A DNA stretch of 64,000 bases from Loigolactobacillus coryniformis subsp. coryniformis KCTC 3167 = DSM 20001 (GTDB lineage Bacteria; Bacillota; Bacilli; Lactobacillales; Lactobacillaceae): the NCBI RefSeq assembly GCF_002706425.1, contig NZ_CP017713.1, positions 2,046,001 to 2,110,000 of the forward strand. Reading direction: 5' to 3'. How positions within the stretch are numbered: the first letter of the stretch is position 1; every line of letters starts with the position of its first letter. The notes beneath the pieces were generated by a model that searched no databases, was not told where the DNA came from, and was given only the letters and a program-made list of their open reading frames with translations. Of the stretch, positions 1,286 through 43,765 are shown piece after piece. Both the position numbers and the translations under genes were made by a program.

Positions 1286-2521
1286 CAAATTGCAAGAACA
1301 AATTAGCCACACGATAAATCCTATTAAATCAGTATTTTCATTAATATTCATATTTTATGGACTTAACTTAACCGGCGGAAGCAGCGGAGAAAAGCTCTTT
1401 GGGTGTTTGATAGCCAGTTTGCCGGCGCGGTAAATTGTTTAGCTTTGACTCAACTGCTTGGATATCATGAGGACCCAAAATATCCATGGATAGACCCTTG
1501 GGTACATCGCGGCGGATCATTCGATTATGCGCTTCGTTAGTCCCACGCTCAGAGGAACGATATGGATGGGCATAATAAAGGTCAGCGACACCGGTAAGTA
1601 CAGCGTCAACTTCCGAGAACTCAGCGCCATTATCGGCAGTAACTGACTTCATGATTGATCCGTATTCTTGACAGATCTTGGCCAGCTCATAGTTGACTGA
1701 ATCGGCATCACGACCATCGATCAAACGTAGAATTTGGCAGCGGGATTGACGCTCGATCAGCGTTAAGATCACACTCTCTTGACCGTTGCGCTTGCCCACC
1801 ACGGTGTCCAATTCGAAATGGCCGAACTCTTGGCGCTGGTCGATACTTTTAGGCCGTTCATCAATACTCCGTCCGGCCAGACGCTTGTGCTTGATCGAGT
1901 GATGATGTTTAGCACGGTGGCGCGTTTTTTCGAGTAGATCAAGATTACGGACTTCAAGTAACTGGGCATCAATATAGTGGTATAGCGTCTTGGTCGAGAC
2001 CATCTCCTCAGGTTGATATAAGCCTTCAAGTTGGGCCCGTCCTACTGCTGCATCAGGCGACCAACCATCTTGACGCAAATGAGTCGTAAAATAGTCGATA
2101 AAATCAGCGACACCGACGAGTTTCAAAGGTCGATGACAGTGGGCTCGATTAGCTTCGTACTTAGCTTGTGCTGTTTCTGGTGAGTATACAGCGTAATATT
2201 GGCGTTGACCATTCACTTTTTTTACTTGGTCGATCTCGCCGCGGCACAATTCATTATTGATTGTTTGATGACAAACATTAAGCGCTCTGGCAATTGCACG
2301 ATTGGAATAGCCTTGGCTGTGCAGCGTAGCAATTCTGCCTCGTTCAAACGAAGTTAGGTGCTGACCTTTTTTTCTGACTGTGGTATTCTGTTCTTGCATC
2401 AAGACAATAACCTCTTTCATTGTTTGTGTAGGAACATCAATGATAACAGAGATTTGTCTTGGTGTTTTTTATTTTATCAATTAGCTAAAAGTATTTGGCT
2501 AACTTGATTATAAAACGCGCG
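1286..2521 (-). mobile_element. IS30-family insertion sequence (copy B1)
   Basis: About 1.24 kb, nearly the same element as the one at 37809-39044. Comparing the copies defines the ends: one terminus is CCAAATTGCAAGAACAAATTAGCC and the other, on the opposite strand, is CGCGCGTTTTATAATCAAGTTAGCC; they pair as imperfect inverted repeats of about 26 bp. The flanks are AGTTTTATTTCTC (1273-1285) and AGTTTTATTGATC (2522-2534), matching at 11 of 13 positions, which looks like an eroded 13-bp target duplication. It sits directly 5' of the T-box leader of the permease gene. Confidence 0.85.
1368..2399 (-). CDS. IS30-family transposase (copy B1)
   Basis: The protein has 343 residues from the chosen start. 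An N-terminal HTH (YSNRAIARALNVCHQTINNE) is followed by a DDE core: FGHFELDTVVGKRNG, SVTADNGAEF and SSERGTNEAHNR. I chose the ATG seven codons inside the longest frame because AGAGG lies about 11 bases upstream of it; the upstream ATG at 2420 lacks a comparable site. It differs at scattered positions from the copy at 37930-38958, including a stretch around residues 245-255, so the two copies are not a very recent duplication. The frame is intact and probably active. Confidence 0.92.
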   Translation of the reverse strand: MQEQNTTVRKKGQHLTSFERGRIATLHSQGYSNRAIARALNVCHQTINNELCRGEIDQVKKVNGQRQYYAVYSPETAQAKYEANRAHCHRPLKLVGVADFIDYFTTHLRQDGWSPDAAVGRAQLEGLYQPEEMVSTKTLYHYIDAQLLEVRNLDLLEKTRHRAKHHHSIKHKRLAGRSIDERPKSIDQRQEFGHFELDTVVGKRNGQESVILTLIERQSRCQILRLIDGRDADSVNYELAKICQEYGSIMKSVTADNGAEFSEVDAVLTGVADLYYAHPYRSSERGTNEAHNRMIRRDVPKGLSMDILGPHDIQAVESKLNNLPRRQTGYQTPKELFSAASAG

Positions 2522-14155: not shown

Positions 14156-14188
14156 ACTTATTCGATTGTGTCCATATTCGGACATCAA

Positions 14189-14272
14189 TACCGGCGATCG
14201 GGGTCGAACCGATACTCCCGCGAGGGAACTGGATTTTGAATCCAGCGCGTCTGCCAATTCCGCCACGCCGGC
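14189..14272 (-). tRNA. tRNA-Leu (CAA)
   Basis: Class II tRNA with a long variable arm and anticodon loop TTCAAAA. It is the last gene of the array. No CCA end is encoded. Confidence 0.95.
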
Positions 14273-14319
14273 ATAATACTTATTTTTAAAAGCATGGATA
14301 CCATACCTTTTTAATACAA

Positions 14320-14390
14320 AGGCGGTAACCGGATTTGAACCGGTGATAGAGGTTTTGCAGACCTTTGCCTTACCACTTGGCTATACCGCC
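14320..14390 (-). tRNA. tRNA-Cys (GCA)
   Basis: Acceptor GGCGGTA/TACCGCC, discriminator U, anticodon loop CTGCAAA. Confidence 0.95.
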
Positions 14391-14424
14391 ATCATCAAGG
14401 TTCAAATACCTTGAAACTTTTAAA

Positions 14425-14496
14425 CTGGGATAGCTGGATTCGAACCAGCGCATGACAGAGTCAAAGTCTGTTGCCTTACCGCTTGGCTATATCCCA
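14425..14496 (-). tRNA. tRNA-Gln (TTG)
   Basis: Acceptor TGGGATA/TATCCCA, anticodon loop CTTTGAC, discriminator G. Confidence 0.95.
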
Positions 14497-14507
14497 ATAT
14501 GGTACAA

Positions 14508-14582
14508 GGGCGGTATGTGGGAATCGAACCCACGCGTGCCGGAGCCACAATCCGGTGCGTTAACCACTTCGCCAATACCGCC
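14508..14582 (-). tRNA. tRNA-His (GTG)
   Basis: Acceptor GGCGGTA/TACCGCC with discriminator C and anticodon loop TTGTGGC. The base before position 1 is T rather than G, so the extra 5' G of tRNA-His is not evident in the gene. Confidence 0.93.
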
Positions 14583-14586
14583 ATGG

Positions 14587-14657
14587 CAGGGATAGTAGGA
14601 GTTGAACCCACATCAACGGTTTTGGAGACCGTGATTCTACCATTGAACTATATCCCT
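14587..14657 (-). tRNA. tRNA-Trp (CCA)
   Basis: Acceptor AGGGATA/TATCCCT, anticodon loop CTCCAAA, discriminator G. Confidence 0.95.
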
Positions 14658-14667
14658 ATTATAAAAA

Positions 14668-14748
14668 TGGAGGAGAGTGGATTCGAACCACCGAACCCGA
14701 AGGAGCGGATTTACAGTCCGCCGCGTTTAGCCACTTCGCTACTCCTCC
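14668..14748 (-). tRNA. tRNA-Tyr (GTA)
   Basis: Class II tRNA with a variable arm, acceptor GGAGGAG and anticodon loop CTGTAAA. Confidence 0.95.
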
Positions 14749-14753
14749 ATAAA

Positions 14754-14826
14754 TGGCGCGGGACAGAATCGAACTGCCGACACATGGAGCTTCAATCCAT
14801 TGCTCTACCGACTGAGCTACCGAGCC
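14754..14826 (-). tRNA. tRNA-Phe (GAA)
   Basis: Anticodon loop TTGAAGC. The acceptor strands are GGCTCGG and CCGCGCC, which leave a T4-C69 mismatch where most relatives have T4-A69. Confidence 0.93.
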
Positions 14827-14844
14827 ATATGAAAATATTATAAG

Positions 14845-14918
14845 CGGTCCCAACGGGACTCGAACCCGTGATCTCCTGCGTGACAGGCAGGCGTCCTAAC
14901 CAACTAGACCATGGAACC
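14845..14918 (-). tRNA. tRNA-Asp (GTC)
   Basis: Acceptor GGTTCCA/TGGGACC with one G-U pair, anticodon loop CTGTCAC, discriminator G. Confidence 0.95.
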
Positions 14919-14926
14919 AATGTTGA

Positions 14927-14999
14927 TGGAGGTTACAGGGATCGAACCTGTGACCCCCTGCTTGTAAGGCAGGTGCTCTCCCAGCTGAGCTAAACCTCC
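14927..14999 (-). tRNA. tRNA-Val (TAC)
   Basis: Acceptor GGAGGTT/AACCTCC, anticodon loop CTTACAA. Confidence 0.95.
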
Positions 15000-15003
15000 A
15001 TAA

Positions 15004-15075
15004 TGACCCGTACGGGATTTGAACCCATGTTACCGCCGTGAAAGGGCGGTGTCTTAACCACTTGACCAACGGGCC
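15004..15075 (-). tRNA. tRNA-Glu (TTC)
   Basis: Acceptor GGCCCGT/ACGGGTC with one G-U pair, anticodon loop CTTTCAC. Confidence 0.95.
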
Positions 15076-15086
15076 AGCATAGCTGA

Positions 15087-15176
15087 CGGAGAGTAAGGGA
15101 TTCGAACCCTTGATACAGGCAATACCCGTATACATGATTTCCAATCATGCTCCTTCAGCCGCTCGGACAACTCTCC
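15087..15176 (-). tRNA. tRNA-Ser (GGA)
   Basis: Class II tRNA of 90 nt, acceptor GGAGAGT/ACTCTCC, anticodon loop TTGGAAA. Confidence 0.95.
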
Positions 15177-15185
15177 ATGACTCGA

Positions 15186-15258
15186 CTCCGGCTGTCGGAC
15201 TCGAACCAACGACATTCTGATTAACAGTCAGACGCTCTACCAACTGAGCTAAGCCGGA
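15186..15258 (-). tRNA. tRNA-Asn (GTT)
   Basis: Acceptor TCCGGCT/AGCCGGA, anticodon loop CTGTTAA. It is the first tRNA after the 5S gene. Confidence 0.95.
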
Positions 15259-15268
15259 ATTATAAACA

Positions 15269-15385
15269 GCGTGGCAACGTCCTACCCTCGCAGGGGGTGC
15301 TCCCCCAACTACTCTCGGCGTTAAGAAGCTTAACTTCTGTGTTCGACATGGGAACAGGTGTATCCTTCTTGCTATCGCCACCACA
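15269..15385 (-). rRNA. rrf: 5S rRNA
   Basis: About 117 nt, beginning TGTGGTGGCGATAGC on the minus strand with matching 3' end TTGCCACGC. It contains the conserved CCCATGTCGAACACAGAAG segment. It lies 10 bp before tRNA-Asn. Confidence 0.95.
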
Positions 15386-15411
15386 CCACTTTCTGAGAAC
15401 GTTACGCTCTC

Positions 15412-15430
15412 AAAACTGGATATTCAATTT
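15412..15430 (-). other. 23S processing stem, 3' half
   Basis: AAATTGAATATCCAGTTTT on the minus strand is perfectly complementary to the segment at 18493-18511 upstream of the 23S gene. The pair would form the RNase III-type stem that brackets 23S rRNA. Confidence 0.75.
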
Positions 15431-15464
15431 ATTTGCCCTTGAACTAACCTGCGTAAATGCTACT

Positions 15465-20168
<4,704 letters not shown>

Positions 20169-29384: not shown

Positions 29385-29622
29385 CAAAAAACCGCCCTTT
29401 TATGTAGCACCCACTGCTACACAAAAAGACGGTGTCTCTTTCTGTCAGTCGATAGCGCCCCGTGATGACTTCATCACGACAGTACTTGACTTATTCAGCC
29501 AAGCCCCAACACTTAATTGAAAAAGCAATTAAGCATTTCGGCAGATCACCCTTTTGCCAGCCCTCAATGACGCTTTTCGCCTCCGACTGGTGACTCATGA
29601 TCTCTGCAACCTCAATCTAATT
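29385..29622 (-). promoter_or_regulatory. Lysine riboswitch (L box) of lysP
   Basis: Read on the minus strand, the conserved L-box blocks are in order: GAGGTTGCAGAGATCATGAG, CGGAGGCGAAAAG, AAAAGGGTGATCTGCCGAA, TTGGGGCTTGGCTGAATAAG and CTGTC...GCGCTATC. A terminator follows, ACCGTCTTTTTGTGTAGCA pairing with TGCTACATAAAAGGGCGGT plus a T run (29385-29433). Lysine binding would favour termination. Confidence 0.93.
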
Positions 29623-29628
29623 GTTAAT

Positions 29629-33271: not shown

Positions 33272-33578
33272 TCTCTACTTCACAATTAAGGAAATTTATT
33301 AGCTTTAACCCACTAATAAATTCTGACGTTACGGACGATGACCATTCAACTACGGCAAAGTACGCCAAGTTGAAACATGGCTCTACTTCACAATTAAGGA
33401 TATTTATTAGCTTAACCCACTAATAAATTCTGATGTTACGGACGATGACCATTCAACTACGGCAAAGTACGCCAAGTTGAAACATGGCTCTACTTCACAA
33501 TTAAGGATATTTTATTAGCTTAACCCACTAATAAATTCTGATGTTACGGACGATCGTTATTCACCTATTTGTTATGGA
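33272..33578 (-). repeat. Tandem structured leader repeat upstream of Rrf2 gene
   Basis: Units begin at 33272, 33381 and 33488 (109 and 107 bp); the third is complete only to about 33554 and then diverges. Read as RNA, each full unit has hairpin 1 (CAACT...AGTTG with inner GGC/GCC), the conserved linker AATGGTCATCGTCCGTAA, hairpin 2 (ATTTATTAG/CTAATAAAT) and the tail TTGTGAAGTAGAG. The last unit abuts the Shine-Dalgarno of the Rrf2 gene. The same architecture occurs at 42689-43009 and 54929-55012. Confidence 0.9.
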
Positions 33579-33615
33579 TATATCATATCACAAATATAAA
33601 TGTGGCGCAAAAAGA

Positions 33616-41056: not shown

Positions 41057-42676
41057 TTAGTACAATGCGGCAACCTGTTTTTGAATATCATCGTGAGCCA
41101 AGAACTCATCATAGTGCGTATCAAAACGCTCAACGACGCCTTTAGCACTGACCTCGACAATATGATCAGCGATGGTTTGAATAAATTCGTAATCATGAGA
41201 AGTAAAGACTAATGCGCCACCAAAATCAACTAACGCATCGTTTAAAGCTGTGATCGATTCCAAATCCAAATGATTGGTTGGATCATCGAGTAACAAAACA
41301 TTAGCCTGGCTGAGCATAATTTTAGCTAACATACAGCGAACTTTCTCGCCACCGGACAACATGTTCAACTTTTTCAGCACTTCGTCACCAGAAAATAACA
41401 TTCGACCTAAGAATCCACGTAAGAAGGTGTTATCACTTTCTTCTTTGCTAGCAAATTGTCGTAACCAATCCAAGATCGTTAAGTCAGCAGTAAATTCCGC
41501 CGAGTTATCCCGCGGTAAATAAGCTCGTGAAGTGGTCACACCCCAGGTTACTGTTCCAGTATCAGGTTCTAATTCACCGGCTAGAATTTGCATCAAGGTT
41601 GTCGTCGCCACATCACTACGACTGATCAACGCCGTTTTTTCACCTGGTTTCAAAGTGAAAGTAATTTGGTCAAGAATTTTAACACCGGCAATCGACTTGC
41701 TGATATTATCGACCCGTAACAGATCACTACCGATTTCGCGTGCCGTTTCAAATTTAATAAATGGATACTGGCGACTCGACGGTTTAATATCTTCCAACGT
41801 GATTTTATCTAACTGTTTTTTCCGCGAGGTTGCTTGTTTGGATTTAGACGCATTAGCGCTGAACCGGGCAATAAATTCTTGTAATTCTTTGATTTGGTCT
41901 TCTTTTTTAGCGTTGGCTTGGTTCTTTAACTGCGCGGCTAACTGACTGGATTGTAACCAGAAATCATAGTTACCAACAAACAGCTCGATCTTGCCAAAAT
42001 CTACGTCACACATATGCGTGCAGACCGTATTTAAGAAATGACGATCATGGGAAACCACGATGACGGTATTAGGAAAATTCATTAGGAAATTTTCTAACCA
42101 TTGAATCGTGGGTGCGTCTAGCCCATTAGTTGGTTCATCCAATAGTAAAATATCGGGCTTGCCAAATAAGGCTTGGCCTAACAACACTTTGACCTTCTCA
42201 TTTTCAGTCAGTTCACTCATTTTTTGTTGCTGCATGGTTTCATCAATACCGAGTTCTTGCAGTAATTGTGCGGCCTCAGCTTCAGCGTTCCAGCCATCCA
42301 TTTCCGCAAATTCGCCTTCTAATTCCGCAACTTTGATACCATCTTCATCGTTAAAATCAGGTTTGGCGTACAAGGCATTTTTTTCCTGCATCACTTGATA
42401 TAACTTTTCGTGTCCTTGGATCACCGTATCCAGAACCGTATACTCCTCAAAAGCATAATGGTCCTGTTTCAAGCTCGTCATCCGTTCGTTAGGCGAAATT
42501 GTTACTTGACCAGTGGTTGGCGCTAATTGGCCGGAAAGAATTTTCAGAAAAGTCGACTTACCGGCACCATTTGCGCCAATAATGCCATAACAGTTGCCTG
42601 GGGTGAATTTTAAATTAACATCAGAATACAATTGGCGATCGGGGAAACGTAAACTAACATCACTTACAGTTATCAT
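41057..42676 (-). CDS. ABC-F ATPase, YbiT/YkpA type
   Basis: This 539-residue cytoplasmic protein has two nucleotide-binding domains and no membrane segment; ABC-F proteins act on the ribosome. NBD1 has Walker A GANGAGKST (34-42) and DEPTN (180-184). A charged linker (about 240-300, RFSANASKSKQATSRKKQL) precedes NBD2. In NBD2 the Walker A position reads SRSDVATTT (352-360) with no GxGKS, the catalytic Glu after Walker B is Asp (LLLDDPTNHLD, 462-472), and the LSGGEK signature (440-445) is intact; NBD1's signature is degenerate (LTENEK, 156-161). So one composite ATP site is canonical and the other is degraded. It is preceded by three tandem structured leader repeats. Confidence 0.93.
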   Translation of the reverse strand: MITVSDVSLRFPDRQLYSDVNLKFTPGNCYGIIGANGAGKSTFLKILSGQLAPTTGQVTISPNERMTSLKQDHYAFEEYTVLDTVIQGHEKLYQVMQEKNALYAKPDFNDEDGIKVAELEGEFAEMDGWNAEAEAAQLLQELGIDETMQQQKMSELTENEKVKVLLGQALFGKPDILLLDEPTNGLDAPTIQWLENFLMNFPNTVIVVSHDRHFLNTVCTHMCDVDFGKIELFVGNYDFWLQSSQLAAQLKNQANAKKEDQIKELQEFIARFSANASKSKQATSRKKQLDKITLEDIKPSSRQYPFIKFETAREIGSDLLRVDNISKSIAGVKILDQITFTLKPGEKTALISRSDVATTTLMQILAGELEPDTGTVTWGVTTSRAYLPRDNSAEFTADLTILDWLRQFASKEESDNTFLRGFLGRMLFSGDEVLKKLNMLSGGEKVRCMLAKIMLSQANVLLLDDPTNHLDLESITALNDALVDFGGALVFTSHDYEFIQTIADHIVEVSAKGVVERFDTHYDEFLAHDDIQKQVAALY

Positions 42677-42688
42677 TGCTTATCCTCA

Positions 42689-43009
42689 CTCTACTTCATA
42701 ATTAATGGTAATTCATTAGCACAGTACGCTAATAAATTTTGATATTACGGGCGATGACCATTCTTGTGGCAAAAAACGTGCCGCAAGAAACATGGCTCTA
42801 CTTCATAATTAATGGTAATTCATTAGCACAGTACGCTAATAAATTTTGATATTACGGACGATGACCATTCTTGTGGCAAAATTCGTGCCGCAAGAAACAT
42901 GGCTCTACTTCATAATTAATGGTAATTCATTAGCACAGTACGTTAATAAATCTTGATATTACGGACGATGACCATTCTTGTGGCAAAATTCGTATCACAA
43001 GCAGAATGG
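42689..43009 (-). repeat. Tandem structured leader repeat upstream of ABC-F gene
   Basis: Three units of exactly 107 bp begin at 42689, 42796 and 42903. Read as RNA, each has hairpin 1 (CTTG...CAAG with inner GGCA/TGCC), the linker AATGGTCATCGTCCGTAA, hairpin 2 (AATTTATTAGC/GCTAATGAATT) and the tail TTATGAAGTAGAG. The tail of the last unit ends 7 bases before the Shine-Dalgarno. Hairpin sequences differ from those at 33272 but pairing is preserved, while the linker and tail are nearly identical. Confidence 0.92.
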
Positions 43010-43057
43010 CCTTTTTCATAGTAGCTTTCACTTTAGCACAGAAACGTCTTAACGACA

Positions 43058-43107
43058 ATCAAAAAAGTGCAGCCGCTGAGTTTTTCTCTCAACAACTACA
43101 CTTTAGG
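43058..43107 (-). terminator. Terminator of the glutamine ABC operon
   Basis: AAAGTGTAGTTG pairs with CGGCTGCACTTT around GAGAGAAAAACTC (itself pairable), followed by TTTTTTG on the minus strand. Confidence 0.75.
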
Positions 43108-43108
43108 T

Positions 43109-43765
43109 TTAAGCGCCCATCCGCCGATCCAGTACACGGGAAAGCCAGGATAGTGCGTAACAAACAATAAAATAAAGCACTGCTAACGCTAAAAACATTG
43201 GCAACACAAAATTCGTATTTTGTCCGTAAATGATCTGCGCGTGGTACATCAGTTCTGGTAACATGATGATCGTTGCTAAAGAAGTATCCTTGATCAACGA
43301 GACGAATTGACTGACCAGCGGCGGAATCATTTTCTTGATTGCCTGCGGTAAAATAATATGTTGCATCGCTTGGCGATAGGACATCCCGTTACTCCGCGCA
43401 GCCTCCATTTGTCCAGGATCAACAGCTTGGATCCCACTACGAATGATCTCGGCAACCATCGCTGATTCAAAGACTGTCATCGCCAAGATCGCCGCCATAA
43501 CAACATCAGGCTTGATCCCGATATTCGGCAAACCGAAGAACGTAAAGAACAAAATCAACAGTAGCGGCAAATTACGAATAATATCGATCACAAAACCCAC
43601 TAACGCGGATAGATATTTGATCTTCACGTAACGTAACAAGCCAAGTAAACCGCCGATAATAAAACTCAGCACGATTGAGATAGCGGAAATTTCAACGGTG
43701 ATCCATAGCCCTTCCAGGAGATAACGGATGTTCAGCCATGAATATGCTTGAATAAAATTATTCAT
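43109..43765 (-). CDS. glnP: Amino acid ABC transporter permease (glutamine type)
   Basis: This 218-residue permease with about five membrane helices is of the HisM/GlnP type. The conserved EAA loop is AARSNGMSYRQAMQHIILPQAIKKMIPPLVSQFVSLIKDTSLA (about residues 133-175), which docks the ATPase. It pairs with the neighbouring 212-residue permease to form the channel. It is the last gene of the four-gene operon, and AGGGGG precedes the ATG. Confidence 0.92.
   Translation of the reverse strand: MNNFIQAYSWLNIRYLLEGLWITVEISAISIVLSFIIGGLLGLLRYVKIKYLSALVGFVIDIIRNLPLLLILFFTFFGLPNIGIKPDVVMAAILAMTVFESAMVAEIIRSGIQAVDPGQMEAARSNGMSYRQAMQHIILPQAIKKMIPPLVSQFVSLIKDTSLATIIMLPELMYHAQIIYGQNTNFVLPMFLALAVLYFIVCYALSWLSRVLDRRMGA

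What the first reader, a model, noticed from the sequence alone, without database searches (positions are those of the whole stretch)
42689..43009. Tandem structured leader RNA upstream of the ABC-F gene
Three exact 107-bp units end just before the Shine-Dalgarno. Each has two hairpins joined by a nearly invariant linker (AATGGTCATCGTCCGTAA) and a conserved tail. Compared with the related repeat at 33272, the stems change sequence but keep pairing (CTTG/CAAG against CAACT/AGTTG; AATTTATTAGC/GCTAATGAATT against ATTTATTAG/CTAATAAAT). Such covariation suggests a real RNA element, and tandem copies suggest graded or cooperative control. I know no named family with this linker.
Basis: partly seen in the sequence, partly recalled or inferred. 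Interest (0 to 1): 0.8.

Follow-up and report, generated by a model that had tools for sequence, protein, structure and literature searches.

The report
Mobile hairpin repeats beside ribosome-binding sites
The three repeats in front of this gene belong to a family of small hairpin-forming DNA elements that seem to have inserted, again and again, just in front of the ribosome-binding sites of unrelated genes in this lactic acid bacterium, so they look like a spreading mobile repeat rather than a dedicated switch for this gene.

Summary
The array is real: three ~107-nt units (90-97% alike, not exact) whose sense strand carries a strongly covarying structure. But it is not a leader peculiar to the ABC-F gene. 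The unit is a genome-wide family: at least 136 model matches here, 8 of 8 genomes of the genus, 18 of 397 genomes of the family in 7 of 40 genera. Of 82 catalogued own-genome clusters, 64 have an ORF start just downstream; of 56 gene-linked clusters with a tail TAG, 54 place it 9-20 nt before the start codon, against the Shine-Dalgarno. Orthologues in two sister species lack it in 49 of 53 and 36 of 36 fetched cases; the ABC-F gene lacks it in 6 of 6 relatives. Filled and empty sites show a practically blunt insertion. The unit's last base pairs with a base of its own linker (131 of 137), and that linker base also complements the base left of the insertion (44 of 58), as guide sequences do in IS608-type transposons. 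No Y1 transposase is resident. Predicted Shine-Dalgarno accessibility is unchanged. Best reading: a new non-autonomous mobile hairpin repeat; its enzyme is unknown.

The parts
42690..42796 (-). proximal unit (107 nt), ends against the Shine-Dalgarno of the ABC-F gene
   Evidence: 119.5 bits
42797..42903 (-). middle unit, 97.2% identical to the proximal one
   Evidence: (120.2 bits)
42904..43010 (-). distal unit, diverged (90-92.5%)
   Evidence: (98.6 bits)
42758..42795 (-). first hairpin of the proximal unit (CCAT...ATGG closing stem)
   Evidence: structure counted; fold
42690..42754 (-). second, irregular hairpin of the proximal unit: linker base at 42754 pairs with last base of the unit at 42690, the AATTTATTAGC stem lies inside
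   Evidence: top covarying column pair 45-121. The pair 51-116 is Watson-Crick in a minority only (mostly G-A)
42684..42689 (-). native Shine-Dalgarno (GTGAGG), directly next to the unit; start codon at 42676-42674
   Evidence: the empty site in relatives keeps TGAGG
43011..43019 (-). left (5') flank ATGAAAAAG, matching ATGAATAAG of the empty site in relative G003
41057..42676 (-). ABC-F family ATPase gene downstream
33274..33381 (-). proximal unit of the second array, before an Rrf2-family gene
33382..33488 (-). second unit of that array
33489..33589 (-). 5'-decayed third unit of that array (good match only from about 33557 downward)
   Evidence: 66.5 bits

Best explanation
The array is a locally amplified copy of a small (about 95-112 nt) non-autonomous mobile element made of two hairpins in series (hairpin 1, a three-base spacer, an irregular hairpin 2 whose closing pair is the linker base and the element's last base). 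Shown by comparison: the element is dispersed, is absent at most orthologous sites in sister species, and joins its flanks with practically no target duplication (at most 1 nt), with its 3' end placed directly against the Shine-Dalgarno, or at fixed sites in another hairpin repeat. Inferred, moderately: a linker base acts as a guide that must pair both with the last base of the element and with the base left of the insertion, so sub-families prefer different targets; tandem arrays follow because the target-like end (TAGN) is kept by every copy, or simply by replication slippage. Inferred, weakly (about 0.35): movement was by an IS200/IS605-like single-strand transposition with the enzyme supplied in trans and now lost or in another cell. 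The downstream gene gets a longer structured leader; a regulatory use is possible but not shown.
For: Dispersed family. Catalogue: 82 clusters scoring 25 or more, 64 with an ORF start under 60 nt downstream; tail TAG to start codon 9-20 nt in 54 of 56. Absence at orthologues: G003 49 of 53, G002 36 of 36, G004 1 of 1; ABC-F 6 of 6. Near-blunt joins: L089, L093, L021 and others against relatives; host-hairpin site 1 CCGCTT/AGCTACG (empty L026, L115; filled L110) and site 2 CCTCAGA/ATCTAA (empty L053; filled L070, L071). Self-pairing of last base with linker base 131 of 137, five standard types besides the commonest one. Linker base against base left of the first unit: 44 of 58 Watson-Crick, 49 with G-U, 0 of 20,000 permutations; without the T sub-family 15 of 25, 160 of 20,000. 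Base left of unit equals the unit's last base 40 of 52 or 46 of 58 with a finer de-duplication. In sister species without the element the native base equals the own last base in 56 of 64 alignments (35 of 41 loci all equal) and complements the linker base in 35 of 42. Sense-strand structure: G-U 127 against A-C 19.
Against: No Y1 transposase in the own genome; only 2 of 8 genomes of the genus have one, and no unit lies near them (best match E 0.37). No variable guide in front of hairpin 1, which an IS200/IS605 left end would need. The few units outside gene starts show no clear replication-strand bias by eye. 12 of 52 first units do not match at the left base, and L026 carries a T unit at the site that otherwise holds A units. 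The matching could also come from selection on the closing pair after insertion, or from a 1-nt duplication. Some 'empty' orthologues keep tail-like remnants (at least L140, L127 and L176 of G003), so part of the absence is loss, not lack of insertion. 4 of 53 G003 orthologues do have a unit or remnant.
Confidence: 0.72

Rival explanations
1. A cis-acting regulatory leader (a new riboswitch-like or protein-binding RNA family) that controls many genes as a regulon; tandem copies give graded control.
For: Sense-strand covariation; sense orientation and fixed distance to the start codon; whole array lies between a promoter-like stretch kept in relatives and the Shine-Dalgarno (by eye).
Against: Genes are unrelated (N-termini; functions read by eye, not searched, except two); absent before most orthologues; Shine-Dalgarno accessibility unchanged; about 13 clusters lie in terminator-like hairpins without a gene start; no terminator or anti-terminator pattern found in the array.
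Confidence: 0.12
2. Mobile repeat moved through RNA: the structured sense transcript is copied and inserted by a reverse transcriptase (for example of the resident group II introns) acting in trans.
For: Sense-strand structure; blunt, sense-oriented insertions next to an mRNA feature; the own genome has 20 RT-domain matches; two arrays (L010, L011) and L213 lie a few hundred bases from a group II intron.
Against: RT matches in only 4 of 8 genomes of the genus, while all 8 carry the unit; most own arrays have no intron nearby (positions compared by eye); no intron splice-site or domain V similarity in the unit.
Confidence: 0.1
3. Mobile repeat moved by a bridge-RNA (IS110-like) recombinase, the unit being a reduced bridge RNA.
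For: Short common bases at both joins; an internal loop next to the joining base; IS110-type transposases in the own genome (2 matches).
Against: IS110-type transposase in 4 of 8 genomes of the genus; no loop was found that pairs with the Shine-Dalgarno side of the target; unit shorter than known bridge RNAs (recalled).
Confidence: 0.06

Closest known systems
BOX, RUP and SPRITE repeats of Streptococcus pneumoniae (PMC3049150; passages seen)
   Same: Small interspersed repeats, many copies per genome, under 200 bp mostly, structured when transcribed, BOX with tandem modules, nested insertions, judged parasitic by the authors.
   Different: BOX and RUP have terminal inverted repeats and target duplications (passages); here none beyond possibly 1 nt. 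Here the whole unit is repeated and the place is fixed against the Shine-Dalgarno. No sequence comparison with BOX was made.
IS608 and other IS200/IS605 transposons and their guide sequences (PMC5934647; abstract and passages seen)
   Same: Target kept in the left flank, no target duplication, hairpin ends, guide bases 5' of a hairpin that pair with the cleavage site and the target.
   Different: No transposase gene, none resident; the guide seems to be one base plus a few weak ones; no left-end guide; two hairpins fill the whole element.
REP/TnpA-REP system (PMC8266576; search listing only)
   Same: Short palindromic, non-coding, high-copy sequences proposed to be moved in trans.
   Different: Y1-type enzyme not found in the own genome; tetranucleotide rules of REP not tested.

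Membership tests
Rfam RNA families (release 15) | match at or above a family's gathering score | tested here: not met
   window; 42600-43110, E up to 10: 8 matches, none at gathering score; six loci of other genomes: only a group II intron elsewhere in L213
IS200/IS605-type (Y1) mobile element, non-autonomous | no target-site duplication, target retained on the left | tested here: met
   a 1-nt duplication cannot be told apart
IS200/IS605-type (Y1) mobile element, non-autonomous | guide bases 5' of a hairpin pairing with cleavage site and target | tested here: inconclusive
   one strong position: 131 of 137 with own end, 44 of 58 with left flank; no second guide before hairpin 1
IS200/IS605-type (Y1) mobile element, non-autonomous | Y1 transposase that acts on the ends | tested here: not met
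   0 in own genome, 2 of 8 in genus without units near
BOX-like small interspersed repeat | terminal inverted repeats and target duplication | tested here: not met
   near-blunt joins; no terminal inverted repeat seen in the alignment
cis-regulatory leader RNA | conserved at orthologous or functionally related genes | tested here: not met
   (85 of 89 orthologue regions of G003 and G002 without it)
cis-regulatory leader RNA | changes expression of the downstream gene | not testable with these tools
   no expression data; predicted accessibility unchanged
group II intron derivative | domain V or intron ends | tested here: not met
   intron models match neighbouring introns, not the units

The most novel reading that the evidence does not exclude
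Each unit is a minimal self-addressing mobile element: a base (or few bases) in its linker reads both its own 3' end and the target, so that sub-families with different linker bases colonise different sites (purine, in front of Shine-Dalgarnos; T or A, at two different sites of one host hairpin), and an enzyme not yet known, encoded elsewhere, moves the naked structured strand. Because every insertion rebuilds its own target at its right end, it grows into tandem arrays inside 5' leaders.
Probability: 0.3. Interest if true: 0.8.

Novelty: new variant of a known kind. Interest (0 to 1): 0.58.

Why it matters
If right, dozens of unrelated genes of one bacterium have been given a 100-500 nt structured leader by a mobile repeat that stops exactly at the ribosome-binding site, a place where most insertions would be harmful. 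It offers a natural set of filled and empty sites for asking what a 5' leader does, and the linked change of linker base, element end and target base is a testable lead to a very small guided mobile element. It also warns that covariation plus a place upstream of a gene is not proof of a dedicated regulator.

Tried and rejected
Rejected or weakened: (1) ABC-F-specific attenuator or leader: absent in 6 of 6 orthologues. (2) Shine-Dalgarno occlusion: no difference in accessibility. (3) Replication-strand bias as a sign of lagging-strand insertion: 55 of 61 gene-linked clusters run with a guessed replication direction (terminus guessed at 1.57 Mb), but this follows gene orientation and no genome-wide baseline was computed, so it was not used. 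(4) A resident Y1 transposase: none in the own genome. (5) Plasmid or phage carriage: no match in either collection with the 344-base query. (6) Long forms with an extra stretch in the linker looked at first like a full-length RNA; they look like other hairpin repeats nested in the unit, not followed up. (7) A tail wholly made of duplicated target, my first idea from the ABC-F site, fails at most empty sites, which have no GAAG before the join. (8) Literature: searches gave listings with no description of this family that I could recognise; only passages of PMC3049150 and of PMC5934647 were seen. Subscription papers are not in that library.

Limits: one search scored 150 candidates and at most 9 per genome with strict filters, so counts are lower bounds. 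Of the sister-species hits, all those of G003 that I noted were fetched, but about 20 of G002 were left unfetched. The printed output was cut in the middle; its totals were printed and one search lists the empty sites. One search holds 81 rows from 51 loci; 64 rows (41 loci) passed my alignment score of 0.45. In the left-flank test 38 of 96 first units were set aside because their left flank itself ends in a TAGN copy. Alignment A2 holds 150 of 167 matches.

Full report
What is there. Between 42690 and 43010, on the minus strand, three units of 107 nt stand head to tail and end directly against the Shine-Dalgarno of the ABC-F family gene 41057-42676. The units are 90-97% identical, not exact. 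A second array of the same family (33274-33589) stands before an Rrf2-family gene.

A dispersed family. A DNA search with one unit gave 77 matches in the 2.95-Mb genome. A covariance model from 62 units gave 136 matches at E up to 0.001 (150 candidates scored). All 8 genomes of the genus carry it and 0 of 33 genomes outside the genus did in that draw; in a wider draw 18 of 397 genomes of the family had it, in 7 of 40 genera (strict filters). One more genus is Pediococcus: P. ethanolidurans record L072 has three units in 8 kb. Three of the ten genomes outside the genus hold one copy each, in near-identical surroundings (L219, L220, L222), which looks like transfer of one locus.

Structure. On 62 own-genome units, 92.9% of cells of a 25-pair structure are paired and 14 pairs have changes on both sides; all five measures exceed 500 of 500 shuffles. 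On 137 distinct units of several genomes, 94.0% and 21 pairs (fitted to the model). The paired columns hold 127 G-U and 19 A-C cells, so the strand under selection is the one read as mRNA. Thus linker and tail close a second, irregular hairpin; its pair 51-116 is mostly G-A, not standard (119 of 137).

Position. In the own genome I catalogued 82 clusters with a profile score of at least 25: 48 with one profile match, 34 with two to five. 64 of 82 have an ORF start less than 60 nt downstream. For 56 gene-linked clusters with a tail TAG, the distance from TAG to the start codon is 9-20 nt in 54. The genes look unrelated (names read by eye). About a dozen others carry T as last base and lie in terminator-like hairpins.

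Empty sites. The ABC-F gene has orthologues (74-95% identity) in six other genomes of the genus; none has a unit. For 61 downstream genes I looked at two sister species: no unit in 49 of 53 orthologues of G003 and in 36 of 36 fetched from G002, plus 1 of 1 in G004. At least three 'empty' G003 sites keep a tail-like remnant (L127, L140, L176), so some absence is loss. At clear sites the two flanks join to the native sequence with nothing or at most one base duplicated, for example L089 (native ATTATTTTAG/GAGG) and L093. The cleanest cases are paralogues of another hairpin repeat in the same loci: CCGCTT/AGCTACG empty in L026 and L115 and filled in L110, and CCTCAGA/ATCTAA empty in L053 and filled in L070 and L071.

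Target and guide. The base left of the first unit equals the last base of the unit in 40 of 52 (46 of 58 when de-duplicated on whole units). The linker base complements that left base in 44 of 58 (49 with G-U), against 0 of 20,000 permutations; 33 of the 58 are T units that sit largely in related host hairpins and are not independent, and without them the figure is 15 of 25, 160 of 20,000 permutations. In sister species without the element, the native base equals the own unit's last base in 56 of 64 alignments (35 of 41 loci throughout) and complements the linker base in 35 of 42. Within the one host hairpin, site 1 (T) carries T units and site 2 (A) carries A units in L055, L063, L069, L070 and L071 (some of which may be one ancestral event in close species), with one exception, L026. 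In IS608, target and cleavage sites are read by base pairing with guide bases 5' of a hairpin, and the target stays in the left flank (PMC5934647, passages). The geometry here is similar. But no Y1 transposase is found in the own genome (the control genomes rang), only 2 of 8 genomes of the genus have one, no unit lies beside them, and no second guide is seen before hairpin 1. Reverse transcriptases and IS110 transposases are each found in 4 of 8 genomes of the genus. The enzyme is therefore open.

Tandem arrays. Units within one array are 95% identical, between loci 72%: arrays grow locally. Many arrays start with a 5'-shortened unit or a bare tail.

Effect on the gene. In three relatives a promoter-like stretch (TTTCTRTGMTARAGT, read by eye) lies shortly before the start codon, so the array probably lies inside the transcript. 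The predicted unpaired probability of the Shine-Dalgarno/start region is 0.474 with and 0.455 in orthologues without the element (n 54, Wilcoxon p 0.65). No expression data were at hand.

Verdict. Real, structured and new to Rfam, but a dispersed mobile repeat rather than a dedicated leader. The closest known kind is the small interspersed repeats such as BOX (PMC3049150, passages) and, for the way of insertion, IS200/IS605 elements. The Shine-Dalgarno-adjacent, practically blunt insertion and the linked change of linker base, end and target make it a new variant.

Noticed in passing
L115 around 1400-1660 (minus strand), L026, L110, L014, L048, L064: A second repeated hairpin element of about 120 nt (AACGTG..CATAAGGCAACTTTTTCCGCTTAGCTACG...CTAGGCTAATGCTCAAAAGTTGGGC..CCTTATGTCACAC) that folds as one long hairpin (-39 kcal/mol) and serves as host for the units at two fixed sites.
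   Followed up: partly
L011, L023, L106, L107, L108, L109, L111, L112, L118: Long forms of the unit with extra structured stretches inside hairpin 1 and inside the linker (CTTGCCGATGTCGATTGGACT...CAAGTCCAAGTCG), probably other nested repeats.
   Followed up: no
L213:614-796 (another genus): One unit lies inside hairpin 1 of another unit, so units insert into each other.
   Followed up: partly
own genome, for example L010:1100-2923 and L011:904-2727: At least a dozen near-identical group II introns with reverse transcriptase (20 RT-domain matches); two stand a few dozen to a few hundred bases upstream of arrays.
   Followed up: partly
L103, L219, L220, L222: The same single unit upstream of a gene beginning MNETSHSEATLSIEDILLTL in four genomes of different genera, which looks like horizontal transfer of the locus.
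   Followed up: no
window 29445-29623: Lysine riboswitch (113.7 bits) on the minus strand; also a complete rRNA operon with twelve tRNA genes at 14188-20166.
   Followed up: no
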